Shown in pieces: positions 22,784 through 60,272 of a DNA stretch of 64,000 nt (position 1 is the first letter of the stretch; each line of letters opens with the position of its first letter). The notes under the pieces are model-generated. The model saw only the letters and a list, made by a program, of their open reading frames with translations. It had not been told where the DNA came from and searched no databases. Position numbers and translations under genes: made by a program. Source of the stretch: Sabellastarte sp. h YS-2021 (Eukaryota; Annelida; Polychaeta; Sabellida; Sabellidae). The stretch is from positions 122,895,530-122,959,529 of the forward strand of contig OZ024931.1 in assembly GCA_964017235.1 (NCBI GenBank), read 5' to 3'.

Positions 22784-22789
22784 ATTCAG

Positions 22790-23230
22790 TGAATGATTTT
22801 GTCCTATTTTTTAATTCCTAGATTACAGCTTCAGATGATGTGTAAGGGTTAGAGCGAGAGGGTGGCTTTTTATAGACTTTGAGGTGAGGGGGAGAATATA
22901 TCAAGATTCAGCATGTAGGATCACTTACTCAGCAAAAGCATTGTGTAGGAAAAATTACTTACTCAGCAAAGGTTTTGTGTGAGGAGACTTAAAACAGACT
23001 AGTATAACTGATCATTAAAGGGAACACAGAAACTACAATAGTAATTAAAAACAGATTTTATTGATAATTAAATGCAGATAAAACAGACAAGTTTATTACT
23101 TAATAATTGTAAAGTTAAAGTGACAAAAAGGTTAGTATATCAGACAGACATCTGCCCATCCTTTACATCTGTGTCTAACTAGAATTTATAAATAAGTTTT
23201 CATCTACTTGGATTTTAGAACATAATGAAG
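22790..23230. other. Promoter and spacer between PC4-like and BIR genes
   Basis: Non-coding. TATA motif CTATAAAAAGCC lies on the minus strand at 22867-22874. Around 22925-22985 ACTTACTCAGCAAA occurs twice about 45 bp apart, a possible regulatory repeat. Confidence 0.5.
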
Positions 23231-30773: not shown

Positions 30774-31175
30774 CTGAAACACAGAGAATATACACTGTCA
30801 TCCTGTGTGACAGAAACATAACAAGACACAGTACTACACTTGATACAATAATAGAGTTAATACACACACTGGCTTTCATTGTTTTAAACAGCCTTTAACT
30901 TTTGGCATATGGTCCAAGTATACACACACAATTTCAGGTAACAAGTTAACAGGAAAAATGTGTTTTTTTTTCCTAATGCAAAAAAAAACAAAGCATTGCA
31001 CAGCAAATAAAACAGCAAATAAAAGATAATAAAACATACAATAAACATTGGTAACAATCTTATAAACAGGTGTTTTATATCTTCCTATAGGTTGTTTTCA
31101 CATTGTAAACCTCTAGGACCAAGAATAAGTGAATTATAAGTCTTTTTAAGTTTGACTATCCTCATTTGACCTTTC

Positions 31176-31404
31176 TTTATTTATTTGGGCATTTATGTCA
31201 CTTTCAATACTGTACAGGTCATCTCATGATGGGTAGTTTTGTGAGCAGAGGAAACCAGTACATACAGTTTGTCCAGGTTCTGTACTGTAAACTGCCGACC
31301 ATTGATAAACACCTACCAACTTTCCCACATAAAGTCTGGAGTTTGAACCGTCAACCTCAGAGGTGGGAGGCGAGTGTGTTACCACTGTACCACTGTGGCC
31401 CCTC
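31176..31404 (-). mobile_element. tRNA-derived SINE, same family as 26272-26512
   Basis: Minus strand: GGCCACAGTGGTACAGTGG head, GAGGTTGACGGTTCAAACTC box B, the shared body and an AAATAAATAAAG tail. It lies inside the 30774-35457 intron. Confidence 0.75.
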
Positions 31405-33060
31405 ATTTGACCTTACGGAAGGGCCCAAGGTCAAATTTGAACACCTCAGAAGATTCCTAGCCCATGATTTCCTATACGTTGGTTTCAGATTGCAGAATTC
31501 TAGGACCAATAATAAACTAGACCTACGCATCAGAGAACCGATGCAAATTTGTATCCACCGGAAAGACAACTCACCAAAGCCAGTGAACCATCTTTTGACC
31601 TTGAAGGAGGGGGCCAAAGGTCAAGTTTAACATCAGAAGGTTCCCAGCCCAAGATTTCGTATGAGTTGGTTTTGCATTGTAAACCTCTAGGATCAGTAAT
31701 AAGCGAGTTATAAGCACTTTTAAGTTTGGCTATCCTCGTTTGACCTTGAAGGGGGGGCAAAGTCAAATCCGACCACACCAAAAGATTCCCAGCCCATGAT
31801 TTCCTAATGGTTGGTTTACATCCCAAACCTCTACGACCAATAATAAGCGAATTATAAGCACTTTAAACTTTGGCTATCCTCGTTTGACCTTGAAGGAGGG
31901 CCCAAGGTTAAATCCGACCACACCAAAAGATTTCCAGCCCATGATTTCCTATAGGTTTGTTTACCATCCCAAACCTCTAGGACCAATAATAAGCGAGTTA
32001 TAAGCACTTTTAAGTTTGGCTATCCTCATATGACCTTGAAGGAGGGGCCCAAGGTCAAATCCAACCACACCAAAAGATTCAAAGCCCATGATTTCCTAAT
32101 GGTTGGCTTACCATCCCAAACCTCTACGACCAATAATAAGCGAGTTATAAGCACTTTTAACTTTGGCTATCCTCGTTTGACCTTGAAGGAGGGGCCCAAG
32201 GTCAAATCCAACCACACCAGAAGATTCCCAGCCAATGATTTCCTACAGGTTGGTTTACCATCCCAAACCTCTAGGACCAATAATAAGCGAGTTATAAGCA
32301 ATTTTAAGTTTGGCTATCCTCGTTTGACCTTCAACGAGGGGCCCAAGGTCAAATCTGACAACATCAGAAGATTTGCAGCACATGATTTCCTATAGGTTGG
32401 TTTCACATTGCAAACCTCTAGGACTAATAATAAGGGATATAAAGGCACTTTTAAAGTCCACTATGTGGGTTTCTTTGGCACTCCGTGGATGACCTTGAAT
32501 TAAGAGGTTCAAGGTCAAATGTGTGCAAGGTTGTAGAGGACATGTATATCTGTTATACATATCACCTATGAAGAGATTCAACCTTCTACCTATGAGAAAC
32601 AGCCTGTAGAAAAATGTAGCTTAGTTTCAAAGAAATGCCCGCGGCGGCCATCTTGTTTTTCAGAATGAGGCTTTTTCAGTCCCAGAGAAGCTTACCCCCC
32701 AATGAAGATATCCTGCAAATTTGGTGAACCTAGCTGGTGTAGTTTTCCTCCTACAGCGTTAATGCCAAAAATTCCCTACACGCGGGAGGCAGCGGCGTAG
32801 CTAACGCTAAACCAAAGTATCCACCGGAGGCATCCGGTGGATACAACAAGCTATAAGCACTTTTAAGGTTAGCTATCCTTGATTTACATTGAAGGAGGGT
32901 CCCAAGGTCAAATCTCACCAAACCAGAAGATTGCGAGCCCATGATTTCTATAAGTTGGCTTCACATGAAAAACCTCTAGGACCAATAATAAGGGAGAGAC
33001 GGGTACTTTTAAAGTCTGCTACATGGGGTACTTTGGCACTCCATGGATGACCTTGAAGAG
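31405..33060. repeat. Tandem satellite, period about 145 bp
   Basis: Units with TGACCTTGAAGGAGGGGCCC, AGCCCATGATTTCCTA and AATAATAAGCGAGTTATAAG start at about 31741, 31885, 32031, 32178 and 32325, with more diverged units on both sides. Open frames through it are by-products of the period. Confidence 0.88.
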
Positions 33061-42956: not shown

Positions 42957-43195
42957 CATATATATTAGGGGTGCGACCAAGCAGTTGACACTCGCCGAGA
43001 GAGGTAAATTTCATGAAAATTCAATCCCAATTCTCAGGGTCGAGTGCTTGTGTATATAACTGGTTACATTTTTTAGTTTATAAAACATAAATAACACACC
43101 TTACTTACATTAAATCATATAATCCACCTTTTTCAACATAATATTATGGATATTATGTGCAGACAAAAACTAATTCAAGCAATTCAAAGCTTTTA

Positions 43196-43321
43196 CAAAA
43201 CACAGGAATAAATATGTGTCAGTCACTACTACTAGTTCACTTAATAAAATGTGGTGGGCCCACCACATTTTATTAAGTGAACTAGTAGTAGTGACTGACA
43301 CATATTTATTCCTGTGTTTTG
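43196..43321. repeat. Perfect 126-bp palindrome
   Basis: 63-bp arms meet at GTGGTGGGCCCACCAC (centre 43258/43259) with no spacer and no mismatch found. It ends 11 bp before the ORF1 ATG. Confidence 0.93.
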
Positions 43322-43332
43322 CATTTCCTACA

Positions 43333-44139
43333 ATGAGTGTGATCTCAACTGATGCCAGTCACACCACTCTGACTAGTGCTGTGTCCAGGCTAGACATACA
43401 GTCAAGTGACCTGGATTTCAGAAGACCAGACACTCCATTTCCCCAGGAGAAATTCTCTGATGAAACCCTTGATTTGCTGATTAAAGCCAGGGATAAGTTG
43501 AGCCATGACCCTCCTAAGGAGCAGCGCCCAAAAGGCAACAAGCGACCCAGGAGAGACATTAGCCCCAGTGCAGGCCCGTCCAACAAACCAAGTGATGCAC
43601 CTGAGCGTAGTGACTACCCACCAGAGTCCAAAAGCATTTACCTGAGGTTGAAGAACAATTACAGAAAGAAGATCACATTGGCAAGCCAAATCAGCCAAAT
43701 GCACTCTGAGCTCCTCAAGAAAAGGTATCCACAGACTGTTGAATTCAAGTTCAATGTCAACAGAAACAGGGATCCAAAAGTTAGAAGCACCTGGATTAAG
43801 ATCATTGATGAGTGCAAGCACAAACTCACCAAGGCAATCCTTGATGACATGTTTGATAAGTATTCTAATGTTAAAGGATCGATCAACCAAGACCTCACTG
43901 AGCTGGAAAAACTCCTGAACAGCACACAACTGCACGAGATCAAGGAATCACTGCACAAAAGAAGCACTGGAATGGCACCAGTAATTGCCAAGAAAGCCAG
44001 ACGCCAGTATGAGGTTACACAAAAACCCAAGGGCAATTTTAGTAAAGGACCAAAGAGAAAGTTTGTCCCAACAAATAGGCGCAACAAGCCAGACAACATG
44101 CAGCAGTTTGTCCAGCAATTGAAAAAATTGTTAAAATAA
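43333..44139 (+). CDS. Penelope-like element ORF1, 268 aa
   Basis: ATG at 43333, just after the palindrome. The N-terminal 90 residues are polar (S/T/D/P-rich with a KGNKRPRRD basic patch). The middle is helical, including LRLKNNYRKKITLASQ and a coiled-coil-like DLTELEKLLNSTQLHEIKE, and the C-terminus is strongly basic (KGPKRKFVPTNRRNKPD). No zinc knuckle. A nucleic-acid-binding, Gag-like role is inferred from charge and position; I do not recognise a named family. Confidence 0.7.
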   Translation: MSVISTDASHTTLTSAVSRLDIQSSDLDFRRPDTPFPQEKFSDETLDLLIKARDKLSHDPPKEQRPKGNKRPRRDISPSAGPSNKPSDAPERSDYPPESKSIYLRLKNNYRKKITLASQISQMHSELLKKRYPQTVEFKFNVNRNRDPKVRSTWIKIIDECKHKLTKAILDDMFDKYSNVKGSINQDLTELEKLLNSTQLHEIKESLHKRSTGMAPVIAKKARRQYEVTQKPKGNFSKGPKRKFVPTNRRNKPDNMQQFVQQLKKLLK

Positions 44140-44296
44140 TTGACTCTAAACTTATATTAGTTAAGCAATTTAACATTCTGCCTGATCAGTGATTTATATT
44201 ATTTGCACATGTTTAACACATCTAATTACACAGGTGCAATTGCACTCAATAAAAACTACCTTATACAATTCATAATAATAGTTTTTATCTTTCAAA

Positions 44297-46699
44297 ATGG
44301 CTAACCTTAAAGAACAAATTGAACTGGTTTCAATAAATGCCCCACCAGGCATTTTACCAACAGGAACCAAATTTGATAGTTACATTGGCCAAAATGTCAT
44401 CAATCTTTCAAAGGTGACACTCACTGAACACCAAGTCACTGCCCTGTAAAAAGGCCTTACCTTCTGCCCAACACCAGGTGCACCAGACAAATCCCAAATA
44501 TGGGACGACTTTAAGGAATTCCATAGAAGGCTTGAGTTGATGCAATTCTTCAACCCAACAGATGACACTATTGAATCTAACATTAATCAAAGTGTCATTG
44601 ACTTCATGAATGAGAATGCTAAAGAAGATATGAATGATTCTCCAGCAGATAATGTTGACCCTTATAAAGAGATACACAGACCATTCAAGAACAAATCAAC
44701 TTGGAAACCTAATCCCCCAAACAGAACACTTGACACTTACAAAAGAGCGTTTAAAATGAACTTGCTTAACAGTAAAGTTAAGCAATGCCACCAACATAAC
44801 CTTACAAAGGAACAGTGGAAGGGCTTGATGGAACTAAGAAAGAATCCTGAGATTGTGATTAAAAAGGCAGATAAAGGATCAGCAGTTGTAATAATGAACA
44901 CAACTGACTACCTGCGAGAAGGCTATAGACAACTCAGTGACCGTAATTTCTATGTTAAAATTAGGGAAAACCCCACTGAACAAATCAGTGAGAAAATTTG
45001 CAAAGTCCTTACTGAGATGAAAAATTTTAAACTCATTACAGAAAAAAACTTTGAGTACCTTAACATCAAGGACCCCAAAGCTGGAAGATTCTACCTATTA
45101 CCAAAAATACATAAAAAACAAGTACCAGGTAGACCAATATGCAGTTCAATAGGGCACCCTACATGTAATATTAGTAAGTTTGTAGATGCACACATCAAAG
45201 GATATGTGCCACAAACTAAGTCCTACGTCAGGGACACACAACACTTTATCAGTAGATTACTAGAAATGGGCAAAATACCAGATGGGGCTCTATTAGTCAC
45301 GTTAGATGTCTCATCACTATACACCAATATCCCCAATCATGAAGGGCTTATTGCAGTGGCGAGCCACCTTAGAAAAGATAGGACTAAAGACCCAATTACC
45401 CCATACATAATAGAACCACTTAAATTAGTATTACAGAGTATGAACTTCACATTTAATGATGATCATTACTTACAAGTAGGTGGGACTGCCATGGGAACAG
45501 GTGTGGCACCCAATTATGCAAATTTATTTATGAATAGATTCGAAACCAAGGCCTTAGAAGGGTGGGACAACAAACCACTATTATGGCTGAGGTTTATTGA
45601 TGACATATTTATGATATCGACTCATGGTTTGGATGAATTACATAAATTCATCTCATACTTAAATATTATCCATCCAAAAATCAAATTCACACATGAACAC
45701 AGTCTGAATTCGATTGATTTTCTAGACACTACTGTCAAGATAGATAGTGATAGAATGCTCTATACAACACTGTTTGAGAAACCTACAGATACACATCTGT
45801 ATCTGCACCACACTTCTGCCCATAACAGACCTTGCCACACCAAAGGACCATTTGGTCAATTCCTGAGAATCCGCAGGATTTGTACCAAAAATGATGATTT
45901 CATTAGTCATGGGTTAGAAATGATTCAACATTATGTCAAAAGAGGTTACCCACTCAAAAACTTGAAAAGACACATGCTAAGAGCAGCTAGGTATTCACAA
46001 AAGGACCTACTTACAGTCAAAAATAAACAAGAAATTAAAACACCTGTAATGGTAACCAAATATAACCCCATGAACCCAAACATTCGTGGTTTCATACACA
46101 ATAATTGGAATATTATTGAACACAGTAATGACTGTGTCCACACATTCAGTGACAAACCAATAGTGGGTTTTCGAAGATTACCAAATCTCAGGGACCTCCT
46201 TACCAATGCATCCATTACATACCCAGTCAAGGATGCACCAACAAAGCAAATCATTCCCAAACACTGCACCAGACTCAGCAGATGTACTTACTGTCCAATG
46301 ATCCAGAAAGACACATCAGTAAAATGCAATGTGTCCAACAAGATCCATAAGCTCACTAAATTACCAAAACATGTTTGTTGTGAATTGAGTGACATAGTAT
46401 ATCTAATCACTTGCAAAAAGTGTAAGAAATACTATGTGGGTGAAACAGGGCGTGCATTCAGATCAAGAATGCATGCACACATTCTCTCAGTGAAAAAACC
46501 AAAGGAAAACAGAATAACCCCAGTGTCTAAACATTTCACAGACAAGGGGCATTCTGTAAAAGATTTGAGATTCTCAATTCTGGAATGGTGTTCTCTAAAA
46601 TATAACACACCTAATCTTGAGAACAGAAAAAAGTGTGAAAAGTGGTGGATGTGGAATATTGGAGCAATACATCCAGTCGGCATTAACCAATTTATTTAG
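44297..46699 (+). pseudogene. Penelope-like reverse transcriptase with GIY-YIG endonuclease, one in-frame stop
   Basis: The frame starts at ATG 44297 and runs to TAG 46699 with a single TAA at 44447-44449, after which it is open for 750 codons. RT motifs visible: KADKGSAVVIM, RFYLLPKIHK, TLDVSSLYTNIP (motif A), GGTAMGTGVAPNYANL (motif B) and RFIDDIFMI (motif C, IDD form). A cysteine cluster CTRLSRCTYC precedes the GIY-YIG domain (IVYLITC, YYVGETGRAFRSRMHAH, E and N residues near the end). All other catalytic motifs look intact, so inactivation is recent or the copy is an allele. Confidence 0.9.
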
Positions 46700-48943: not shown

Positions 48944-48949
48944 CACGGT
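48944..48949. repeat. Target-site duplication of the 11.3-kb element, left
   Basis: CACGGT, matched at 60267-60272. Confidence 0.9.
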
Positions 48950-50245
48950 AGTAGTATAAGGACAACGACAAACTTATATTCCACCACATTTTTGAGCAAT
49001 CTGATTGGTCTAGAGGGGTCACGTGACATAGGTGACATCATCATGGTGACCATGGCAACGGAAGTGACATCATCATGTTTACCATGGCACCGGAAGTGAC
49101 GTCATCGGGATTACCATGGTAACGGAAGTGACATCATCTTGATTACCATGGCGACAGAAGTGACATCATCATGCAGCGATCTGATTGGTCGAGACATAGG
49201 TGATGTCACCATGGTGATTGGCTAGCTAGTAATATATATCTCTATATATATCCCTAGTTAGCTATTAGCTAGCTAGTAATATATATCCCTATATATATCC
49301 CTAGCTAGCTATTAGTTAGCTAGTAATATATATCCCTATATATATCCCTAGCTAGCTATTAGCTAAGGTGCACATGCGTGTGATAAAATTTAGAGTGTAC
49401 ATGCGCATGCTAGATTTTTTCCCCTAAATATTTATTCGCGCATGCACAGTGGTGTGTAGCAATCTGATTGGTAGATGACGTCACGTGACCAAATGCTGCC
49501 ATTTGATTGGTTGATGATGTCACATGACCCCACTGACGTCAGAGTGATTGACACGTGGTAAACAATAACAATGGGGGTTAGATATGGTATCCAGGAATAA
49601 TAATAATTATTATTATTATAATGATGCCAGATAGCAAGTTACATCAGGGTGAATTTATAGTAAGAATAGTGTTTTTATGTCAAAAATTGCAAAATAGTGG
49701 GTTAAAATTTGAGGGACCACTTAATTCTGACTATTGGCTAACCAGTCTCAAGATATTTTTTGACAAAGTTCCATAAAATCCCCTATTATTGCTCACCGCC
49801 ATCTTGTATGACATCATGCACGATGTCATGTGGTGTGTAGCAATCTGATTAGTTGATGATGTCACGTGACTAAATGGAGCAATCTGATTGGTTGAATCTG
49901 GTTGATGACATCATATCACGTGACTATACATACTGCAATGTGATTGGTTGATGACTAAATGCTGCAATCTAATTGGTTGCTGACATCACATCAACCAGGA
50001 TGCAGTCATCTGATTGGTTAATGGAGTGATGGTGATTGTTTATTAGGTCGCGCATGCGCATATTGTTGATTATAGTTTGGTACAGTATGTATGTGTAATT
50101 TTTATATTTTTAGTCATAACTTCCTTATTTATGGATGGATTTTAATGAAATCAAGACCAAAAGAAGCGTTGTAAAGTACACTTTCCAGCAATATATAGTT
50201 TTCCATGTGTATCTGTCATAATGAAAAAAATACCAAATTAAAAAC
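48950..50245. repeat. Left TIR of the 11.3-kb element
   Basis: Inverted match to 59167-60266. It contains repeated GTCACGTGAC, TGACGTCA, ATCTGATTGG, CCATGGTAACGGAAGTGA and AGCTAGTAATATATATCC units. A segment of about 200 bp near 49675-49870 is absent on the right. Confidence 0.9.
49030..49175. promoter_or_regulatory. RFX/CRE-like tandem array in left TIR
   Basis: Four units of about 33 bp: a quasi-palindrome such as GTGACCATGGCAAC or GATTACCATGGTAAC (RFX X-box-like), then GGAAGTGACATCATC (CRE-like). CTGATTGG (inverted CCAAT) lies on both sides. The right TIR holds the mirror array around 60030-60180. Confidence 0.5.
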
Positions 50246-50366
50246 AGAAAGTAAGCATTGTGTAATATTCAGACCTTCGAAACCATATTTAGACTCTGCA
50301 AGATGCGAATAAAGCCTGTGGTTAATAACAGGTAAAAAACGGGTATTTCCAATATTACCCCTGACC

Positions 50367-50480
50367 CTCCTCCTCCTCCTCCTCCTCTTTCCTCCTCCTC
50401 CACCTCTTTCCTCCTCCTCCTCTTTCTTCCTCCTCCTCCACCTCTTTCTTCCTCTTTTCTCCTCCTCCTCCTAATATTAC
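50367..50480. repeat. (TCC)n microsatellite
   Basis: TCCTCCTCCTCC runs broken by CACCTCTTTCC, mirrored as GGA-rich sequence at 58978-59060 with CTAATATTACCCTTGA/TCAAGGGTAATATTAG beside both, so it belongs to the inverted ends. Confidence 0.9.
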
Positions 50481-50529
50481 CCTTGACTCTCATTTTCACT
50501 CCTCCTAATATTAGTGCAGTGTATTGAAG

Positions 50530-50895
50530 ATGGATACAAAAGTAGAAATAGATATTGGTTACAAAGGTTTTGGAGAGCACGTATTAAGTATAAGAAGATA
50601 TTTTTACAAAGACGGGAAAATAAGTTTGACTATGATATGTCGCCATAAACTTTATGATAGATTATATGAGAGTGTAGGTAAAATTAATCATTTGATAGAA
50701 AAGGGTTCTTTTGAGAAAATTTGGTTAGATGAGAATGACTGCATAGAAGTATTCAAATATAAAGGAGAGAGTCAAATTCACATTCGACATACAGATGAGG
50801 GCGTAATGTTGAATAAAACACATTGGGAGAATTTAGTATGGTTAATGCAAAAATATGCAAAAACGATAGGTTTCGATAGGTATTTTGGTGTATAA
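50530..50895 (+). CDS. Small PC4-like protein A of the 11.3-kb element
   Basis: 121 aa from the first ATG (50530). The N-terminal part is a beta/helix unit (KGFGEHVLSIRRYF... DRLYESVGKINHLIEKG). The C-terminal part CIEVFKYKGESQIHIR followed by GVMLNKTHWENLVWLM has the order of the PC4/SUB1 signature: aromatic strand, K-G turn, 'IR' strand, G-x-x-L, then a W helix. The N-terminal unit is repeated in the 52925 ORF (GFGNYVKLLREKNGKSWW). A nucleic-acid-binding role is inferred. The intact frame and good start make this the best-preserved member of the array. TATAAAA motifs and GCGCATGCGC-like modules separate it from the next gene. Confidence 0.65.
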   Translation: MDTKVEIDIGYKGFGEHVLSIRRYFYKDGKISLTMICRHKLYDRLYESVGKINHLIEKGSFEKIWLDENDCIEVFKYKGESQIHIRHTDEGVMLNKTHWENLVWLMQKYAKTIGFDRYFGV

Positions 50896-50904
50896 AAGAA
50901 AACA

Positions 50905-51091
50905 ATGGGAGTGTGCATGCGCAAGGTAAACAGTATAAAAAGACGTAGAATGAAGTGCATGTAAATTTTAGAATGCGCATTTGCAAAATAAAATTTAGAG
51001 TGGCACAGAGTGCGCATGCGCGCGTTAAAAAGTAGAGTTGAGAAGTTGCTTAGATTATTGCGTGGGCATGTGAACTTAGAAGGTGTATAAA
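50905..51091 (+). promoter_or_regulatory. Intergenic promoter module: GCGCATGCGC-like sites plus TATA
   Basis: GTGCATGCGCAAG, AATGCGCATTTGC and GTGCGCATGCGCGCG (NRF-1-like palindromes) with AAAATTTAGAGTG. TATAAAA lies at 50934-50940 and 51085-51091, the latter 34-40 bp before the ATG at 51125. The AAAATTTAGAGTG/GCATGCGC pairing also occurs in both TIRs and at 52741-52830. Confidence 0.55.
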
Positions 51092-51124
51092 AGCAGGTGA
51101 AAGAGTGCAAAATAAAAATAAAAA

Positions 51125-51493
51125 ATGAATGTGGAGGTTGAATTTTTTAAGAGCAGAGAACGAAAATTGGTGGTATTGAGAAAAATAAGTGTAGAAGAGC
51201 AAGTGACGGATTTTGATGCAACAATAATTTTTGAAGATGAATATGAAATAATATTTCGCGAATCAAAGAGAATAAGTAAATTAATAGAGAAAAGCTATCG
51301 GGAGTATATGGGTGACAAGCATCGTTTAAAGGTGGAATTAGACAGTTTGGTGTATATAGGGGATTTTTATTTAACATTTTCTCAGTGGTCAGAATTTTGT
51401 ACGGTTTGGAATCAATTTGAAGCAGGTGGATTACTATATGAAAAGTATCAGTTATCAATACCAAAATCTCGAAGAGAATTAAGAAATGATTAG
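51125..51493 (+). CDS. Small PC4-like protein B of the 11.3-kb element
   Basis: 122 aa from ATG 51125. Layout as in protein A: a charged beta start, a helix EIIFRESKRISKLIEKS at about 41-57, then LKVELDSLVYIGDFYLTFSQWSEF, where the G-x-x-L-x-x-x-x-W order of the PC4 signature can be traced, and a basic tail. Similarity to A is by layout and a few positions only. The start of the next ORF overlaps its stop (ATGATTAG). Confidence 0.55.
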   Translation: MNVEVEFFKSRERKLVVLRKISVEEQVTDFDATIIFEDEYEIIFRESKRISKLIEKSYREYMGDKHRLKVELDSLVYIGDFYLTFSQWSEFCTVWNQFEAGGLLYEKYQLSIPKSRRELRND

Positions 51494-51769
51494 TTTTGAG
51501 GTGCAGAAAAACAAGTTGATATTTTCTAAAGGACATCAAAAGGTTATTGTTGCAGGTGAAGATTATAAAAAGTTTAAAAAAATTTTAGGCAGAATAAGTC
51601 GTGGATTAAAAAGTCTAGTCGTGAATTTTTTGGAGAGACTTGGGGTGGGTGGACAATAGAATTGGTGAAGGTGATAAAAATAGGAGGAATATCATTAAGT
51701 CATGAACATTGGTTAAAGGTGGTAGCAATTTGTTGTAAATCAGAGAAAGGAGTATATTACCTTGGATGA
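51486..51769 (+). pseudogene. Third array member, frameshifted
   Basis: ATG at 51486 opens a 57-aa frame (KGHQKVIVAGEDYKKFKKIL) that stops at 51657-51659. From about 51600 a second frame continues the same kind of protein (WGGWTIELVKVIKIGGISLS, then HEHWLKVV) to TGA at 51769. The second half has the strand, G-I-S-L and W-helix order of the PC4 signature. One frameshift separates the halves. It could be decay or programmed frameshifting. Confidence 0.5.
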
Positions 51770-52297
51770 GTTTAAAGGAAATTCAAGTATTAGCAAGGAG
51801 ACAGGTGGATGCAGTGGAGGTAGTGAGATTGGTGAATTTAAAGAATATTGGAAGAGTGATAGTGTTATTGGTGTATTGTTTTTACCGATTGAAAATTAGT
51901 TTTTCTTGGAAGACCTTATTAAAGCTTGGTTATCATTTCCTGGGTCGATTTTTGAAAAAACAGAATTAATTATTTTTCTGATTATTTACAGACTCTTGGT
52001 AATGATTTTGAGATAGCAGCCACAGAATTTGATTTAATAATTGTAAAGGAAAACTCTGAATTAATATTAATGGGGACGATGGAAAAATTAAAAGCGTTAG
52101 AAAAACCTTTAAAAGAAGGTATATCAAAAGGGGAATTTTCAGACTATATGATGACAGATGGATGGAGTTGTTATATTTCAAAAACAGGTTCATTTCATTT
52201 ATTTTGTTATTCTCAACCTATTTTGAATTTGAGTTTTAAATCATTTTCATATTTATTGGGTTTAGTAACAAATCATTACAAGGGTTATATGATTTGA
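51766..52297 (+). pseudogene. Fourth array member, broken into two frames
   Basis: An ATG at 51766 overlaps the preceding TGA (GGATGAG) and reads 67 aa to 51969. A second open stretch reaches 52297 with DFEIAATEFDLIIVKENSE, WSCYISKTGSFHLFCY and ILNLSFKSFSYLLG. These resemble the beta/helix layout of the neighbours but lack the key Trp. Neither half alone looks like a complete protein. Confidence 0.45.
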
Positions 52298-52553
52298 AGA
52301 TCAGCTATGTGAGTGTCACTCTTGCTATAGTGACGAGTATACTTGGGACCATTTGGATCTATTTGAAAAGCGAGGTTTAAAGATAGAATTGGGTGATGTG
52401 GTGACAGGAGAAATGTTGTTAAAAATGTTAAAGATTCAAGAGGATCTTTTTTGTTGTTTGCATCATTTTAGACCAAAAAGGTTAGAAGAATTATCTTTGG
52501 CTAGATTAAATGAACAGGAAAAGAAAAAAAATACCAGAAACTGTGTACTATAG
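52277..52553 (+). pseudogene. Open stretch with CECHSC motif, no ATG start
   Basis: The frame opens directly after the preceding stop region without an ATG and includes EDQLCECHSCYSDEYTWDHL, then FEKRGLKIELGDVVTG and FCCLHHFRP. It stops at 52551-52553. The cysteine motif recalls the zinc-knuckle ends of the 54577 ORF. It may be the 3' half of a damaged gene. Confidence 0.4.
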
Positions 52554-52740
52554 TTGTTTCAGAGGATCAATGTATCGAGATGTACCATATTTATGGTTTA
52601 ATTCTACTGCTTTTTCAGTACACTGTTTAAGGCGTCCGAAAGAACATCATTGGGAAATTGATAATGAGCATGAATTATGGAACATATTTTCCGTTTTTCT
52701 AAAGCATAAAGGTTTTGTAATATCCAAATGGTGGATTTAA
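52510..52740 (+). CDS. Small ORF of the PC4-like array, 76 aa
   Basis: ATG 52510 overlaps the previous frame's end. The protein starts with a basic NRKRKK stretch and then YYSCFRGSMYRDVPYLWF and NEHELWNIFSVFLKHKG. A strand and W-helix order like the C-terminal half of the neighbours can be seen. It could be a half-gene left by decay. Confidence 0.4.
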   Translation: MNRKRKKIPETVYYSCFRGSMYRDVPYLWFNSTAFSVHCLRRPKEHHWEIDNEHELWNIFSVFLKHKGFVISKWWI

Positions 52741-52875
52741 TGTGCATACGCAAATAAATTTTTACCATGTGTTGCTAAAATTTAGAATGCGCATGTGCAA
52801 TGAAAAAATAATAGCATGCGCATGTGCGACTTAAATATTAGGAAAAAAGTGTTTAAAAGAGAAAGACAAGAACAA
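52741..52875 (+). promoter_or_regulatory. Second intergenic promoter module
   Basis: GTGCATACGCAAATAAATTT, AAAATTTAGAATGCGCATGT and AGCATGCGCATGTGCGAC repeat TIR-derived modules. A TTTAAAAGAG TATA-like box is near 52851. The next ATG is at 52925. Confidence 0.5.
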
Positions 52876-52924
52876 TATGAATTATTCGAGATAAAGGATT
52901 TGTAGAGAAAGGAATAAAAAAAAT

Positions 52925-53741
52925 ATGGAATTGAGTTCAACTCTTTCAATATCAGTAGGGCAGGGATTTGGCAATTATGTGAAACTACTTCGAGAAAAGA
53001 ATGGGAAATCTTGGTGGATTAATTTGAGCAGTAGTTTATTTGAGAAAATGTTTTTGATGAAGGGGGAAATTCATAAATGGATGCAAACAGGGGAAGAAAA
53101 GGAATGTTTGAAAATGGGAGCAGTAGTTGTTAAACTGAAAGAGTATGAAGGGGAATAGTGTGAACAGAATTAATTTTAATGGAAAAGAATGGGTTCAATT
53201 ACACCAAATGATGGACAAAATTATGGGTCAATTAGATCCTAAAAAAGAAATTTTTGAGAAACCATTTTTAGTGCGGTATTATCCCAAACATGGGGAAGTG
53301 TTTTATTTTCATGAAGCATCAGCAGCTGCTGATTATCCAGGTGTTAAAATTTTGAAGAAAAAATTGACTCTTCCAACAAAGTATGAGTTTATGTTAATGA
53401 GGATAAGTTATGTTGTAAGAGAAATGTTAAAAACATATTCAAGAAAAAATGGTGAGGGTTGTTTTATGGGGTATTTGAGTCAATTAGATCATAATCTTTA
53501 TCTTGTGGAGTGGAGTGAACAAGTAGATAATTATTATCATAGGGTAAAATCTACATTAAAATAGGAAAAAGTGGTAGAATTTTTTGAAGGGGCTTTAAAA
53601 AATGTAGGGATAAATGAAAGTATTTCATTTGATAGAATAATGTCCATGGAAGATAAGGAAATAATGGATGTTGTAAAACCTGTAAATTATCCTCGTGAAT
53701 ATGAGATGTTGTTTAAACCTTTTGTAAAAGAAGAAATGTAA
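52925..53741 (+). pseudogene. Long array member split by a frame change and an in-frame TAG
   Basis: ATG 52925 gives 77 aa (GFGNYVKLLREKNGKSWW, homologous in layout to protein A; ends VVVKLKEYEGE) to 53158. ATG 53145 in the next frame continues with INFNGKEWVQLHQMMDKI, the expected W-helix, and a second domain (FLVRYYPKHGEVFYFHEASA) to TAG 53562-53564. The same frame then stays open for 58 more codons to TAA 53739-53741. It therefore appears to be a two-domain gene with a one-base frame change and a TAG, or two overlapping genes. Confidence 0.55.
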
Positions 53742-53774
53742 AAATATATCAAAAGTGGTTGTTATGTTTTTTGT

Positions 53775-53990
53775 GCTTTTCAATGCAAGTCAAAGTTGCT
53801 TGATGATGTAAAATGTATATAGATATGGTTGTTAATGCAAGTTCAAAGTTGCTAGGTGATGTAAAGTGTATATAGATACGGTTGTCGACGCAAGTTCAAA
53901 GTTGCTAGGTGATGTAAAATGTATATAGATACGGACATCAATGCAAGTCAAAGTTGCTTGGCAACCAAAGTGATGTAAAAGGTGTTAAAT
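53775..53990. repeat. Tandem repeat, period about 53 bp
   Basis: GCAAGTTCAAAGTTGCTAGG, then GATGTAAAATGTATATAGAT, at about 53785, 53837, 53890 and 53943. Confidence 0.88.
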
Positions 53991-53993
53991 GAA

Positions 53994-54494
53994 ATGTCAG
54001 TCACTTGTACTTTAGTCAAGATAGTGTACACAGTGTTTTTTAGACTCTGTCGTAAAGAAGATGTTTTTAACATTTTTCAAAATTTAAAAGTGCATTTGAC
54101 AGGGGACTATGTAGCTTTAAAGTTAACTAAAGGAAAATTGAGTCAGTTAAAAGTATTTGTCAAAGATATGTCTATTGAGGAGTCTTTTGGGTTTAAGAGT
54201 TTTCAAGTGTCTTCATCAGACTTATTAGACCAAGGATACAGAGGGTACTTAGAAGTAGAACGTCGAGGGATTTTTCTCACTTCACAGTATCTGGACATTG
54301 AAAGTAGTTTAAAAGAATTGCAATAGTTCTTAAATGAAAACAAAGTAGATTTGATGGAATTTCAAGACACGATTCATGTGTGTGGTTATCCTGGTCAAGC
54401 TAAAGCCATAGAGATCAAGGGATGTTCAACAGCTATGAAGAAATATTATTTTGCTCCAATGAAGAAAAGTATGGTGACACAAGTGATTAAATAA
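53994..54494 (+). pseudogene. Array member interrupted by an in-frame TAG
   Basis: From ATG 53994 the frame reads 110 aa (EDVFNIFQNLKVHLTGDYVA, GYRGYLEVERRGIFLTSQYL with a PC4-like 'strand, G-I-F-L-T' order) to TAG 54324-54326. It then continues open for 55 codons (FQDTIHVCGYPGQAKAIEIK) to TAA 54492-54494. This is either decay by CAG-to-TAG change or readthrough. Confidence 0.5.
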
Positions 54495-54576
54495 GACAAT
54501 CTTCCTACAAGTAAAAGTTTAGGATTTGGAGCACAATGTCTGGGTAAATGGAGCAGAAGAAAGAAGTGAAATACTA

Positions 54577-55122
54577 ATGCCCTTTTATTTAGGTGCTCAT
54601 TGTGAAGATCTTGTCAAATCCAGTCGTCAATTGATAAAAGCCAAACAAGTGATTTTTATTTTTGTGCAGCAACTTTCAGGTTATTTTCCTATGACATTGT
54701 GTGACATTGGAAAAAGAAACACCTGTGGGGAAAAACCATTACACCCATTAGCCTGGCAGAAAGTCTTTCATTCTGAAGATGTGGCTAGTTTTTTAAATAA
54801 AATAGTGGATTCTCTTCCCGAAAGAAGTTTGAGAATGATGGTGATGAATTCAGCATCTCCAAAGACTTTGTTTGAAGAACTGGATGAAATCTTAACAGAT
54901 GTACAAATGCAAGACAATGAAGCAGAGAATCTATTAGAGTCATTATTAGCCATGACTGAGGGATCAGAAGGACTTGACAAAGAATTCTCTGCACTCCCTG
55001 GAGTTGAGAATGTTTTAGCAGCTATGAGCAGTTTCCAAATGATGTGCACTGTGTGTTACCAATTATCAAATGAAGGATGTCATTGCCATGAAATGAGGTG
55101 TGAACGATGTTTTGGTTTGTAA
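54577..55122 (+). CDS. PC4-like and zinc-knuckle protein, 181 aa
   Basis: First ATG in the frame at 54577. Residues about 1-65 hold strand-like segments (AKQVIFIFVQQLSGYFPMTL) and HPLAWQKVF, a faint PC4-like order. The middle is acidic and helical (ELDEILTDVQMQDNEAENLL). The end is a cysteine cluster C157-x2-C160-x7-C168-x-C170-x4-C175-x2-C178, probably zinc-binding. The stop is followed at once by AAAAG|GTAAGA, a good 5' splice site, with an acceptor TGATTTCCAG at 55591-55600, so it may share a spliced transcript with the 55632 ORF. Function unknown. Confidence 0.55.
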   Translation: MPFYLGAHCEDLVKSSRQLIKAKQVIFIFVQQLSGYFPMTLCDIGKRNTCGEKPLHPLAWQKVFHSEDVASFLNKIVDSLPERSLRMMVMNSASPKTLFEELDEILTDVQMQDNEAENLLESLLAMTEGSEGLDKEFSALPGVENVLAAMSSFQMMCTVCYQLSNEGCHCHEMRCERCFGL

Positions 55123-55125
55123 AAG

Positions 55126-55600
55126 GTAAGAAAATGATTTTTAAAAACCCGCTAAAATACATATGAAAAATATTTTCTACACATTGTAAAATTATAAATC
55201 ATGAAAAAATGATAAGCAAAACAACGTTTATTTAAAAAGTGTTGTGACGTCATAAACCACAAAAATAAAAATTGTAACGTTGCAAATGGTATGACGTTTA
55301 TTGTAACATTGTCTTTAGAGATGCATTATTTTATTATTATTATTATTAATTATTTTATTTTATTTATATGTTTTAAATTTTAACGCATAAATGTTTTTTA
55401 GGAAAGTTTCAGTCAGGCAATGTTTAAAACAAACTAAACGTATAAGTTATAGTTTAAATATGTTTTTTATAAAAGATAAAAGGTTTTTTTAATTTTTTGT
55501 TTCTTGTTTGAAACTAAGGTTTTGTTTATATAGATATATCGTCTTGACGATGTAATTTACGTCAAGTTAAAATATTCTTTGTATGTCATTTGATTTCCAG
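55126..55600 (+). other. Candidate intron between the 54577 and 55632 ORFs
   Basis: GTAAGA after the stop of the first ORF and TTTGATTTCCAG before the second ORF. The stretch between is AT-rich with (TTATTA) runs and no ORF. Confidence 0.4.
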
Positions 55601-55631
55601 CAGTCAAAGTGGGGGGACGTGTTCAATCATC

Positions 55632-56117
55632 ATGTCAAGCCTCAAATGTGAAAAATGTCTTCATCCAGTGAAAAAAAATCTCAGAACTGTTACTGGTGTT
55701 TCTGTGCCCTTCTGTTACTGGTGTTTGAAGTTTTTAAATAAAGAAGATCCCGAAGGACTTGTAATGCATGTATTTCACTGTAGAAATCACCCATTGAAAC
55801 GCAGTCAAAACAAAATGAGTGCTTTAGAATGGGGACAAATGAGGTGCTACTGCTCCGTTTATCAGAAGCTGCAAGATTATCTGGATGGGAAGATTCCTTA
55901 TCCATTTTTTGGGTGTGATGCCGCAGTTCAAACAGAGGAAGAATCTTTTGCGGAGAATGTCAAAGCTCCCGAACCTATACTGATTCATCCAATTGTCGGT
56001 GAAGAAGAACTTTCCACTTTAAAAATGAAATTTGAAGACGGGGAATTTAAAGTCAAAGTAGGGAAGAACAGCAAATGCACCACATGTTTCAATGGTTTTG
56101 AATGTGAACTGTATTAG
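55632..56117 (+). CDS. Cysteine-rich protein, 161 aa, unknown
   Basis: ATG 55632 is the first in-frame start. A C6-x2-C9-x18-C28-x2-C31 set is followed by VFHCRNH and RCYC, suggesting one or two zinc sites in the first 80 residues. The C-terminal half is acidic with beta-like segments (LKMKFEDGEFKVKVGK) and a final CTTC...CELY. No family recognised. It follows a candidate intron and is followed directly by the kappaB-like array. Confidence 0.55.
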   Translation: MSSLKCEKCLHPVKKNLRTVTGVSVPFCYWCLKFLNKEDPEGLVMHVFHCRNHPLKRSQNKMSALEWGQMRCYCSVYQKLQDYLDGKIPYPFFGCDAAVQTEEESFAENVKAPEPILIHPIVGEEELSTLKMKFEDGEFKVKVGKNSKCTTCFNGFECELY

Positions 56118-56134
56118 TCAAAGAAGCTTTCCAA

Positions 56135-56181
56135 GGGACTTTCCAAGGGGACTTTCCAAGGGACTTTTCAAGGGACTTTCC
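56135..56181. promoter_or_regulatory. Tandem kappaB-like array (GGGACTTTCC)
   Basis: GGGACTTTCC at 56135-56144, 56148-56157 and 56172-56181, with GGGACTTTTC at 56160-56169, spaced 12-13 bp. The first three match the NF-kB/Rel consensus GGGRNNYYCC perfectly. It could also be a simple tandem repeat without function. Confidence 0.5.
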
Positions 56182-58001
56182 GATGAACTTTTATCTATGC
56201 GTCTGAAAACAATATCGAGGATTCAGAGTGTTGTGTTTCTTATAAAAAGACTTTTCCTACTTTGGAAAATACAAGGGTATGAGAATTATCTATTTTCCCT
56301 TCTTGTCTTTTAAAGATGTTGAGATATTTGTTCAAACTTGCGTCGTTTGCTTTTAAAAGGCACTTTGTACAGTCTCAGCAGGCAAAAAAAAAGTTAACAT
56401 TAAAACCGTCCAAAAAATAATAATATATATAAATAATGCATAATTTTTACACCATAATGTAAATTATGGGTACAAAAGTTTGAATATTTAGAAGTAATTA
56501 AATCGTTTTCTTTATTCAAGCTTTATTTCGCTGTAACTTTTGGAATGTTAATGACGTTCTGATCTCAAAGCGCGTGATTCATTTTAAATGTCTTATGACA
56601 AGACTTTTTTTTGCCTGTGGGGAATTATTTGTAGTTTACTAAAGGTTTTAAAATGTCTTTTCAAATCTATGTTCTGTGGTGGGAATAAGGTAATATTTTC
56701 AAGCTTGAAAAAATTACCTTATCCGTTTATACCTTTCTAAAAGGGGAATAATTCTTGTACAACGTTTTTACGTCTCTATGACGTTTTAAACTTTTCTAAT
56801 ATGTAAATGCACATAAAGTGTCACTGGTGTTGCACGTCTCCAAAAAAAAAGACGTGACTTTTAAAAAGAGTTTTTTTTCAAGGGTGAAATATGTAATGAT
56901 TTTCGCGTCTCCAAAAGACGTGTCTTTTAAAAAAAGTTTTTCAAGGTTGAAATCTGTAGTAAAACTCCAGTGATGGTTGTATAAATTTAACTTTAACTTC
57001 ATTAGCTAAAAAAACTCTGATAGAAGGTTACCACAGTTCCATTTTCTTGCAACTTTAGTGATAAATATTCTTCTTAAAGCACTGTTCCCAGTCGGTCATT
57101 ATTTGTAAATTGTCTTTTCCCATAAATTCTTTTGAGTTAATTTATCCAACTTAAAATGACTTTTGCTCTGTGTTTTGCAACTTTAGCGATAAATATTCTT
57201 CTTAAAGCATTGTTCCAAGTCGGATATTATTTGTGAATTGTCTTTTCCCATATTTGAGTTAATTTATCCGTCTTAAAGTGACTTTTGCTCTGTGTTTTGC
57301 ATTTCACGTGTAAAATCCGTAAAGGTGATCATTGTTGATGCATTTTTTAAAAAAAAGTTTTTCAACGCTTTTCAAATGTAAAATTTATTTTAAGACTTTC
57401 TTAAGTGTGAAAACTGTAAAAGAACGTCACATCCCCCCTCTTTGAAAACTTTTTAACGGAATATTCATAAGATAACCTATTTTTAAATCTAAAATAATAT
57501 AAAAAATATTTACTCTAAAAAGTGGGGTTAGATTTTATTTCAAATTTTATCTTTATGCGTTTTAAAATTTTTTTAAAGATTTATTGATAAAAAAGTTTCA
57601 AATATATCATTTCATTTTTAATGCGTGAAGATGTGATTATAACCACGTCATTTTTCTGTGATTATCAAATTTTAATGCGTGAAGATGTAAATATAACCAC
57701 ATCATTTTTCTGTGATTATCAAATTTTAATGGAAGATGTAAATATAACTACGTCATTTTTCTGTGATTATCAAATTAATTAAGACTGTTTTTTGTTAGTA
57801 TTTTAAAGTTTAAAAATTTCTGTTAACATTTTTAAAAAGGGTTGTTAAAAAATTTTATGAAATATTTATTGTAAATTTTCTGTGATGACTTAATTTGTTT
57901 AAAAAAAATTTATCGTTAAAATGTATTTGAATAAAACAAGTGGATTTAATCTTGATTTTTTTTATGGTAAGGAATGAAAATTCCTTTTGATGGTTTATAT
58001 T
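56182..58001. other. AT-rich non-coding region with short tandem repeats
   Basis: No ORF supportable. It holds two copies of a GTCTCCAAAA/GACGTG-T-CTTTTAAAAA unit (56830-56960), two copies of an about 127-bp unit with GATAAATATTCTTCTTAAAG (57058-57300) and three copies of GAAGATGTAAATATAACCAC with CATTTTTCTGTGATTATCAA (57625-57775). Confidence 0.6.
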
Positions 58002-58448
58002 TTAAAAGTACTTTGATGAAGAGCCGTCCTGCAAATGTTGATAAGGGATCAGCATTCGATTTCTTTTCAAAACCACCCTTGCAAGGTATTCCAAGGAAAG
58101 GACACGATTGTACACTGCCCTTTTCAATTTCAACCTTGTCACTGTGCTGCCTGCCCAGTCGTATAAATAATTTTCGTGGTAAAAATCCAGCAGTTCTTCC
58201 TTGGAATTAAAGCAGGTCAGATTCAACTCTAATCTGTACTGCCCCAGGGTTTCTCTCACTATTTTCCTGGTAAACAATTTATCGGGGCCCATTTTTACCA
58301 CCAAACTTATTTCCTGGTTGACCGAATCAAACAGCACAATAAACGAAAGTGGCTCCGACAAGAAATCAAAGCAATCTTTCAAATCTTTGACATGAACTAT
58401 GCAGCTCGACATCTTGAAAAGATTTGAATAAACGCCTAACATCATCAT
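58002..58448 (-). CDS. Opposite-strand unknown protein, 148 aa
   Basis: Three consecutive ATGs begin at 58448. The protein has beta/helix character (SCIVHVKDLKDCFDFLSEP, SFIVLFDSVNQEISLVVKM) and a basic end with LARVVLKRNRML. It is the only minus-strand ORF in this element and lies next to the right TIR, so it points inward from that end. No family recognised; no intron seen. Confidence 0.55.
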   Translation of the reverse strand: MMMLGVYSNLFKMSSCIVHVKDLKDCFDFLSEPLSFIVLFDSVNQEISLVVKMGPDKLFTRKIVRETLGQYRLELNLTCFNSKEELLDFYHENYLYDWAGSTVTRLKLKRAVYNRVLSLEYLARVVLKRNRMLIPYQHLQDGSSSKYF

Positions 58449-58775
58449 GACGCAAAAAATTTCAGTGACGTTGAGATGTAAACTTCGTCACAATGAGCTT
58501 AAAATTTGAATGAGGTCATAAAAAATCAAGTTTCTTTTAACGATTTTATTTTTTACAAATAATAAACTTATATACCTTATAACTACTTATACAAAAATAA
58601 AAACAGATCTATATACCATTATGAAAATAGACATTTTACTGAAAAAGCTTTGCTTTGACTATAATAAGTTTATCTTAAATACAATTACGAAAAACATTTT
58701 ACTATGAAAACTTTTACCATTTATACAATTTTGAAAACAGCACCACTACCTCATTTTCATAAATGGTGTTGAAAT

Positions 58776-58945
58776 TTAGTGGTGGTGGTGGTGATGGTAG
58801 TGATGGTGGTGGAATATGGTGGTGGTGGTGGAATATGGTGGTGGTGGTGGTGGTGGTGGTGGTGGAGGAGGTGGTGGTGGTGGTGGTGGAATGTGGTGGT
58901 GGAATGTGGTGGAGGTGGTGGTGGTGGTGGTGGTAGTGGAGGGGG
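58776..58945. repeat. (TGG)n microsatellite
   Basis: Long GTGGTGGTGG runs broken by GGAATATGG. Poly-His/poly-Pro open frames through it are artefacts. Confidence 0.92.
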
Positions 58946-59166
58946 AGGATAGAAAATGAGGGTCAAGGGTAATATTAGGAGGAGGAGGAAAGAGGTGGAA
59001 GAGGAGGAAAGAGGAGGAGGAGAAGGGGGAGGAGGAGGAAGAAAGAGGAGGAGGAGGAGAACAAAATAAAGATATCAACAAAATGTATTTTATTTACAAT
59101 AATATTCAACAACATATGAATAATAAAAGAAATTACAAGTTTATGTACAACCATATACATTTTATT

Positions 59167-60266
59167 TTTAAAAAAATAATTTTTTCATTATGACAGATAC
59201 ATATGGAAAACTATATATTGCTGGAAAGTGTACTTTACAACGCTTCTTTTGGTCTTGATTTCATTAAAATCCATCCATAAATAAGGAAGTTATGACTAAA
59301 AATATAAAAATTACACATATATATACTGTACCAAACTATAATCAAAAATATGCGCATGCGCGACCTAATAAACAATCACCATCACTCCATTAACCAATCA
59401 GATGACTGCATCCTGGTTGATGTGATGTCAGCAACCAATCAGATTGCAGCATTTAGTCATCAACCAATCACATTGCAGTATGTAGTCACGTGATATGATG
59501 TCATCAACCAGATTTTAGACATAAAAACACTATTCTTACTATAAGTTCACCCTGATGTAACTTGCTATCTGGCATCATTATAATAATAATAATTATTATT
59601 ATTCCTGGATACCATATCTAACCCCCATTGTTATTGTTTACCACGTGTCAATCACTCTGACATCAGTGGGGTCATGTGACATCATCAACCAATCAAATTG
59701 CAGCATTTGGTCACGTGACGTCATCTACCAATCAGATTGCTACACACCACTGTGCATACGCAAATAAATATTTAGGGGAAAAAATCTAGCATGCGCATGT
59801 ACACTCTAAATTTTATCACACGCATGTGCACCTTAGCTAATAGCTAGCTAGGGATATATATAGGGATATATATTACTAGCTAACTAATAGCTAGCTAGGG
59901 ATATATATAGGGATATATATTACTAGCTAGCTAATAGCTAACTAGGGATATATATAGAGATATATATTACTAGCTAGCCAATCACCATGATGACGTCACC
60001 TATGTCTCGACCAATCAGATCGCTGCATGATGATGTCACTTCCGTCACCATGGTGATCATAATGACGTCACTTCACTAATCACGATGATGTCACTTCCAT
60101 TACCATGGTAATCCTGATGACGTCAGTTCCGGTGCCATGGTAAACATGATGATGTCACTTCCGTTGCCATGGTCACCATGATGATGTCACCTATGTCTCG
60201 TGACCCCTCTCGACCAATCAGATCGCTCAAAAATGTGGTGGAATATAAGTTTGTCGTCCTACTACT
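59167..60266. repeat. Right TIR of the 11.3-kb element
   Basis: Inverse of 48950-50245 with scattered substitutions and one long deletion. It ends GTCGTCCTACTACT. Confidence 0.9.
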
Positions 60267-60272
60267 CACGGT
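60267..60272. repeat. Target-site duplication of the 11.3-kb element, right
   Basis: CACGGT, identical to 48944-48949. Confidence 0.9.

What the first reader, a model, noticed from the sequence alone, without database searches (positions are those of the whole stretch)
48950..60266. 11.3-kb element with Polinton ends but none of the Polinton core genes
The sequence shows AGTAGTATA-type ends, 1.1-1.3-kb TIRs and a perfect 6-bp duplication, all as in the Polinton 23 kb away. Yet no frame shows polymerase, integrase, ATPase, protease or capsid motifs. Instead there is a run of small, mostly unrecognised genes with shared promoter modules. This could be a non-autonomous satellite mobilised by Polinton integrase, comparable in principle to a virus and its satellite, or a new element family.
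Basis: partly seen in the sequence, partly recalled or inferred. Interest (0 to 1): 0.87.

Follow-up and report, generated by a model that had tools for sequence, protein, structure and literature searches.

The report
One half of a split Polinton
This 11.3-kb stretch is an old insertion of an integrase-less relative of Polinton virus-transposons that carries only their accessory genes, while sister elements with the same kind of ends carry the capsid genes, so a virus-like genome seems to have been divided between separate jumping elements in an animal genome.

Summary
In detail: 48950-60266 has AGTAGT ends, 1.1-1.3-kb TIRs and a perfect CACGGT duplication; 48 protein queries find no integrase, ATPase, capsid or penton gene and only decayed polymerase scraps. 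Its genes (E1-E5, P8, P9, P10) match the accessory half of 'B' Polintons in the same genome (integrase within 20 kb of 41 of 46 B places).

The window copy belongs to a separate 'A' lineage that multiplied without a detected integrase: 5 of 11 A loci read have exact, different 6-bp duplications. Longer A relatives carry POLB; two nested deletions explain the window copy.

Unexpectedly, other elements with A-type ends and the same POLB arm carry capsid genes and no accessory genes. In the search lists the sets never meet: 0 of 37 accessory places lie within 20 kb of 39 capsid places. Integrase lists were capped.

A-lineage genes (accessory plus POLB, pooled) show purifying selection (dN/dS 0.36; frame-shifted control 0.83). 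E1 has a predicted PUR-alpha-like fold, and (GGN)n runs mark the joint.

Best reading: a trans-mobilised Polinton satellite, one half of a split gene set. Co-operation of the halves is untested.

The parts
48944..48949 (.). left copy of the 6-bp target-site duplication, CACGGT
60267..60272 (.). right copy of the 6-bp target-site duplication, CACGGT
48950..50253 (+). left terminal inverted repeat, AGTAGTATAAGG end; related TIRs at other accessory-class and capsid-class elements
59156..60266 (-). right terminal inverted repeat; lacks a stretch of about 210 bp of the left arm
50530..50895 (+). E1, 121 aa, intact; predicted PUR-alpha / PC4 / Whirly-type fold
   Evidence: 75% identical to E1 of one of two B Polintons read, no E1 match in the piece of the other
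51125..51493 (+). E2, 122 aa, intact; aligns with E1 and E3 as one family
51486..51769 (+). E3, broken by a frameshift here (open, 93-95 aa, in relatives)
51956..52740 (+). E4, broken here (263 aa in a B Polinton)
52895..53738 (+). E5, broken here (open frame of 282-291 aa in relatives)
53994..55122 (+). P8, broken here into 53994-54326 and 54577-55122; one open frame of about 370 aa in many relatives; Cys-rich C terminus
55632..56117 (+). P9, 161 aa, intact; Cys/His-rich
56943..57132 (-). decayed scraps of A-type POLB (residues 302-369 of the N-terminal query)
   Evidence: E 7.6e-9 in three short pieces
58005..58412 (-). P10, 136 aa from the conserved ATG (148 aa from an upstream ATG at 58448); the accessory gene most alike between the window copy and B (88%)
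58837..58934 (+). (GGN)n runs at the joint between P10 and the POLB arm
   Evidence: runs of 8 or more in the P10-side piece of 10 of 10 other accessory-class loci read
59060..59155 (-). remnant of the POLB arm (sequence that lies between the (GGN)n stretch and POLB in longer relatives)
50912..50923 (+). TGCGCATGCGCA-like palindrome, one of 12 matches, all in the element (starts 49396, 49437, 50049, 50912, 50974, 51011, 52741, 52788, 52817, 59351, 59751, 59792)

Best explanation
The element is a decayed copy of the accessory-gene class of a Polinton lineage ('A') in which I found no integrase. Read from copies: one A form consists of the accessory arm (E1-E5, P8, P9, P10), a (GGN)n joint and a POLB arm between AGTAGT-type TIRs; a second form, the window's, has lost POLB. 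Both forms are dispersed, each insertion that passed the test having its own 6-bp duplication, and the genes show purifying selection among copies that mostly share the joint. A sister class has related ends and the same POLB arm but capsid genes (penton, MCP, protease, ATPase) in place of the accessory arm. Inferred: a rve integrase from co-resident autonomous Polintons acts on the shared AGTAGTATAA ends and inserts both classes in trans; POLB comes from the longer members or a helper; the capsid class or another Polinton packages them. The PUR/PC4-like E proteins would bind exposed (GGN)n or other single-stranded replication intermediates and mark A DNA for replication or recombination at the joint, where arms are exchanged.
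Against: No transposition, helper or particle was observed. The exact-duplication test failed at 6 of 11 accessory loci. The integrase lists are capped (133 of 3115 and 100 of 4021 candidates scored), so an A-type integrase on a third element is not excluded; POLB, MCP and TIR lists are capped too (54 of 2167, 95 of 1963, 40 of 540). Only about 10 terminal bases are shared between A ends and candidate B ends, and the far B ends were not read. Four of the 11 copies used have in-frame stops in P8 and the window copy is broken in four genes, so much of the family is dead. The dN/dS control is crude: for E1, E2 and E5 singly, 4-6% of bootstrap draws do not put the real frame below the control. E1 is closer between A and B (dS 0.41) than the other accessory genes, and some copies have divergent E2, P9 or P10 alleles, so the history is mosaic and part of the selection may predate the deletions or have acted elsewhere. 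In one POLB-bearing copy (L016) the P10 side of the joint differs.
Confidence: 0.8

Rival explanations
1. A true two-part (bipartite) Polinton: accessory-class and capsid-class elements are obligate partners that share TIRs and POLB, are packaged together or apart, and borrow or share an integrase.
For: Mutual exclusion in the lists with related ends and the same POLB arm; similar numbers of places (37 and 39, fragments included); similar sizes (10.4-13.4 kb for five accessory elements, 11.35 kb for the C3 capsid element); selection on the accessory half; GCGCATGCGC palindromes in pieces of both classes.
Against: No integrase found in either class; no evidence of co-packaging or co-transmission. 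The capsid MCP is closest to another Polinton type in this genome (62%) and the accessory genes to B, so the two arms may have joined POLB separately rather than split from one parent.
Confidence: 0.35
2. Two unrelated sets of deletion or recombination by-products of autonomous Polintons, carried along passively; the gene content is leftover and has no role.
For: The accessory class contains broken genes, and the POLB frames of the C3 capsid element are interrupted; C1:112.9 shows a further deletion; (GGN)n at the joint is a plausible recombination hot spot; TIR arms of one element can differ (82% over 294 columns in the C3 element).
Against: dN/dS well below the frame-shifted control in the pooled set; many full-length open P8, P10 and MCP frames among copies of about 80-99% identity; junctions are shared, not independent, in most copies read.
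Confidence: 0.25
3. The window copy is a simple one-off internal deletion of a normal Polinton.
For: Accessory genes match those of B Polintons with core genes.
Against: The A P8 is only about 40% identical to B, and synonymous divergence between A and B is high (mean dS 1.4-1.9) for E2-E5, P8 and POLB; the same junctions occur at several loci, some with different duplications.
Confidence: 0.04
4. The A lineage has its own integrase on a third element class that my capped integrase lists missed.
For: Ten TIR-A matches of 38, at about seven loci, lay next to neither P8 nor MCP of A type in the lists.
Against: One of those loci, sampled with 700 bases, holds the A-type ATPase, i.e. the capsid class, and another (C7:14562757) has P10 about 1 kb away, i.e. 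the accessory class. Five remain unread.
Confidence: 0.25

Closest known systems
Polinton/Maverick, including vertebrate Mavericks and adintoviruses (PMC8097293 and PMC11071296, passages read; PMC4028283, passages and one section read)
   Same: AG-starting TIRs, 6-bp duplication, POLB and capsid genes in relatives, accessory genes homologous to those of B Polintons
   Different: No integrase found in this lineage, and accessory and capsid genes sit on separate elements
Polintons without capsid genes (PMC4028283: nine of the elements without MCP in a set of 72 also lacked PRO and ATPase; section 4 read)
   Same: Concerted absence of the morphogenesis genes
   Different: [quoted passage not shown] here no integrase was found either and a complementary capsid class exists
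Non-autonomous DNA transposons / MITE-like derivatives (general knowledge)
   Same: Terminal sequences and duplications kept, transposing enzyme lost, copies dispersed
   Different: Keeps eight accessory genes, several intact and under selection, and in part a POLB
Polinton-like element with a disrupted recombinase, proposed to be immobilised or dependent on integrase in trans (PMC4642659, one passage read)
   Same: Possible dependence on an integrase supplied in trans
   Different: There a single element disrupted by a retrotransposon; here a multiplied lineage
Virophages and satellite viruses (search listings; passages of PMC10120064)
   Same: Dependence on a helper is the working hypothesis
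   Different: No helper shown; no capsid gene on the accessory class
PUR-alpha / PC4 / Whirly single-strand binders (PMC4764581 and PMC7990775, passages read)
   Same: Predicted fold of E1; PUR-alpha repeats I-II bind CGG-repeat single strands and separate a double strand with a GGN motif
   Different: Sequence identity only 5-11% over the top PUR-alpha rows; binding by E1 untested

Membership tests
Polinton/Maverick | TIRs with AG start and 6-bp target-site duplication | tested here: met
[quoted passage not shown]
   window copy has only decayed scraps at 56943-57132; POLB present beside 9 of 37 A-type P8 places
Polinton/Maverick | rve-type integrase | tested here: not met
   none in the window element, none in 20 pieces of 10 accessory loci, none in the C3 capsid element, whose POLB C-terminal 2.5 kb was not read; genome-wide lists capped
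Polinton/Maverick | MCP, penton, protease, ATPase | tested here: not met
   absent from the window element and the pieces of 10 other accessory loci; present in the sister class
Non-autonomous Polinton derivative | several dispersed copies with individual duplications and no recombinase gene | tested here: met
   five exact, different duplications among 11 accessory loci tested; no integrase in the pieces read
Non-autonomous Polinton derivative | mobilised by the enzyme of an autonomous relative | not testable with these tools
   only the shared AGTAGTATAA terminal bases with candidate B ends speak for it
Multipartite (segmented) virus | complementary gene sets on separate units with common ends | tested here: met
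   from capped lists and from 10 accessory and 3 capsid loci read in whole or part; complete apart from the integrase
Multipartite (segmented) virus | all essential genes present across the segments | tested here: inconclusive
   no integrase found; lists capped
Multipartite (segmented) virus | segments packaged and transmitted together | not testable with these tools
   needs particles, cell data or several genomes
PUR-alpha/PC4-like single-strand binders (protein E1) | fold | tested here: met
   [not shown]
PUR-alpha/PC4-like single-strand binders (protein E1) | sequence profile | tested here: inconclusive
   Pfam PC4 E 0.0028, 17.5 bits below the cut-off of 25; no PC4 match at E 1 for the B copy of E1; no convincing PDB match by profile

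The most novel reading that the evidence does not exclude
A bipartite animal Polinton: an integrating double-stranded DNA virus whose early/accessory genes and whose capsid genes live on two separately inserting, co-regulated elements with common ends and a common polymerase arm, using an integrase borrowed from other Polintons, and with PUR-like proteins acting on (GGN)n joints at which arms are exchanged.
Probability: 0.33. Interest if true: 0.92.

Novelty: new variant of a known kind. Interest (0 to 1): 0.77.

Why it matters
If the halves co-operate, it would be a case of genome division in an integrating double-stranded DNA virus, with both halves and several Polinton types present in one genome, so the origin of segmentation and of satellites could be followed by sequence alone. 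Even without co-operation, a Polinton lineage that multiplied without a detectable integrase and kept its accessory genes under selection suggests that those genes act for the DNA that carries them and not only for the complete virus.

Tried and rejected
Viral-contig scans with P8 and with an MCP alignment found no relatives. Pfam and PHROGs gave nothing above cut-off for the accessory proteins. Profile searches of the PDB with P10, E1-E3 and P9 gave no convincing match; the RecA rows for E1-E3 came from summed weak repeats. A single-sequence model of P10 failed (pLDDT 38.6), so an SH2/SOCS-like reading that I had from memory is not claimed. The idea that the Polinton 23 kb away is the parent or direct helper was dropped because the B type fits better. 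Host identity was not pursued. Empty sites were not searched; different duplications at other copies served instead. Of nine paper searches, eight concerned Polintons or Mavericks and one Pur-alpha. No listing or passage that I saw describes an integrase-less Polinton lineage with a split gene set; that is no proof of absence.

Dropped rows: 105 P8 matches were merged to 84 places; one A place with a 41-aa match was dropped. Integrase rows used: 47 of 133 and 107 of 133; the 100 rows were not put into the positional test. MCP rows under 79% and POLB rows under 83% were left out of the A counts, and fragment rows were merged. The rows after C8:110816524 were left out. In one search copies with divergent alleles were dropped gene by gene: 3 of 9 for E2, 2 of 9 for E3, 1 of 11 for P8, 4 of 11 for P9, 4 of 11 for P10.
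Full report
What is there. The window lies at C5:122895530-122959529 of an unnamed 1.79-Gb genome, by its gene and repeat content an animal's (the last point is my reading). The element 48950-60266 has AGTAGT ends, TIRs of about 1.3 kb (left) and 1.1 kb (right), and CACGGT on both sides. A second, ordinary Polinton at 2477-25797 has TIRs that are 100% complementary in the longest blocks and the duplication GCTGGA; 17 of the 100 listed matches to its integrase, its own included, are at 100% (rounded).

Gene content. The forward genes E1-E5, P8 and P9 and the reverse gene P10 match, in order and orientation, the accessory half of 'B' Polintons that I read at two loci (L031-L034). There they stand next to PRO, MCP, mCP, INT, ATPase and POLB. 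Neither B locus is perfect: at C5:138.5 a deletion joins the start of POLB to the ATPase, and at C1:175.4 the integrase frame is broken and no E1 match was seen; the far ends were not read. Other B places have integrase frames of 374 aa without stops. In the window copy E3, E4, E5 and P8 are broken; E1, E2, P9 and P10 are open. Scraps of POLB persist at 56943-57132.

A separate lineage. A genome search with P8 gave 105 matches, which I merged to 84 places. They fall into an A group (60-100% identity, 38 places) and a B group (35-49%, 46 places). B-type integrase (47 of 133 rows used) lies within 20 kb of 41 of 46 B places and of 1 of 38 A places; the one is a 41-aa match. Between A and B, mean dS is 1.4-1.9 for E2-E5, P8 and POLB, 1.2 for P9, 0.85 for P10 and only 0.41 for E1, while among A copies dS is about 0.1 for E4, E5 and P8. 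So A as a whole is not a recent deletion of B, though some genes were exchanged later.

Mobility. Around ten A loci I read 10 kb on each side of P8. Exact 6-bp duplications with AGTAGT ends were found at four of these and at the window: CACGGT, ACTATC, CAGGCC, TCCTTG, TGTAGG; the strict test failed at the other six. Four of the ten carry POLB inside the pieces, and one more has it beyond an insertion that I read as DIRS-like. No other core gene was found in the 20 pieces with window-type, B-type or A-type capsid queries.

Two nested deletions. POLB-bearing A copies run from P10 through a GGT/GGA stretch into the POLB 3' end; in one of four (L016) the P10 side differs. POLB-less copies (window, C1:48.6, C5:0.7, C4:11.6, C6:20.4) share that joint and then a second junction into the TIR; C1:112.9 has a larger loss (whose output was cut in the middle). 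The gap between P10 and POLB is 372-1044 bp in 7 of 8 A places (the eighth, 6.6 kb, has the insertion) and 5.5-5.8 kb in 13 of the 16 places, out of 23 in the 57% POLB group, that have P10 nearby.

The other half. POLB of A type occurs at 31 places in the capped list, 22 of them away from P8. Reading beside one of them showed ATPase, protease, MCP, a 109-aa protein, penton and small proteins, then an A-type end (L035). The other end and the duplication CTCGAG are in L036, giving 11,351 bp. I did not read the 2.5 kb of POLB C terminus between the two pieces; it was seen only as a search match. Its left end matches an end of the accessory element at C5:0.7 (95.8% over 310 columns), and the sequence between POLB and the joint is closely alike in both classes. 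Two more TIR-A pairs hold capsid-class genes where I sampled them: C1:6451394-6462039 (3.5 kb read) and C8:78141097-78149558 (0.7 kb read).

Mutual exclusion. MCP of A type (79% or more) has 39 places in a capped list; 0 of 39 have A-type P8 within 20 kb, 0 of 37 P8 places have it the other way, and the closest pair is 235 kb apart. POLB-A stands next to P8 only at 9 places, next to MCP only at 21, next to both at none, next to neither at 1; POLB identities to one reference overlap (86-100% and 83-97%). Of 38 TIR-A matches (some of them two ends of one element), 20 are near P8, 8 near MCP, 10 near neither, none near both. No MCP-A place has P10 within 20 kb. Integrase rows were not near any of these, but only 107 of 133 rows were used and the tool had scored only 133 of 3115 candidates.

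Where the halves come from. The capsid-class MCP is 62% identical to another Polinton type in this genome and about 30% to B and window MCPs. Of 665 related proteins 120 are listed; leaving out three at 85% or more they are 43-60% identical, most on short contigs of sources without names; named ones are F54H12.2-like proteins of two scallops and a sea urchin and a snail protein. The accessory arm is B-like. So the halves may have joined the POLB-A arm from different sources; this weakens the idea of one parent that split, though not the present complementarity.

Selection. Nei-Gojobori counts over up to 11 A copies give dN/dS 0.20-0.52 per gene and 0.36 [0.31-0.42] pooled over eight accessory genes and the POLB C terminus; the +1 frame gives 0.83 [0.71-0.99]. 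Singly, E1, E2 and E5 are not clear (real frame below control in 0.94-0.96 of draws), E3, E4 and P8 are at 0.98-0.99, P9, P10 and POLB at 1.00. Divergent alleles were dropped gene by gene; with all copies the values are 0.28-0.54, controls 0.69-1.45. P9, P10 and E2 are mosaic among copies, which points to exchange between elements.

Shared control sites. TGCGCATGCGCA-like palindromes number 12 in the window, all in the element, against 0.43 expected; similar ones occur in B and in capsid-class pieces. From memory this resembles the NRF1 consensus.

Mechanism and doubt. Most likely: ends recognised in trans by a Polinton integrase; POLB from longer A members or a helper; accessory proteins favour the DNA that encodes them. 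Shown are anatomy, shared junctions, exclusion in the lists and the selection signal; inferred are helper, packaging and co-operation.

Noticed in passing
window 2477-25797: Polinton with near-identical TIRs, duplication GCTGGA, a NADAR match at the C terminus of the POLB frame, a BIR protein and a RING protein; 17 of 100 listed integrase matches in the genome are at 100% (rounded), so this type looks recently active.
   Followed up: partly
window 22097-22810: A 238-aa reverse-strand frame of that Polinton with a weak PC4 match (E 0.0032), perhaps a distant counterpart of the E proteins.
   Followed up: no
window 58005-58412: P10 has a C-terminal stretch that resembles a SOCS/BC box from memory; the structure model failed (pLDDT 38.6), so this is only a lead.
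   Followed up: partly
G000 C3:122810769, C5:137880126, C11:23878245 and others: Another Polinton type with a 467-aa MCP frame (62% to the A capsid class) and, at several of these places, a POLB at 57% to POLB-A a few kb away.
   Followed up: no
L017: A retroelement that I read as DIRS-like lies in the POLB arm of the accessory element at C2:180.9 Mb.
   Followed up: partly
L032:8145-9554: In the B Polinton at C5:138.5 one 470-aa frame joins the start of POLB to the ATPase, a deletion in this copy.
   Followed up: no
window 43174-46696: A long frame that from memory looks like a Penelope-like retroelement (not searched), with a 63-bp perfect inverted repeat at 43196-43321.
   Followed up: no
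window 31133-32392: Frames made of degenerate repeats (GPKVKSNHTRRF...SQTSRTNNK type) of unknown nature.
   Followed up: no
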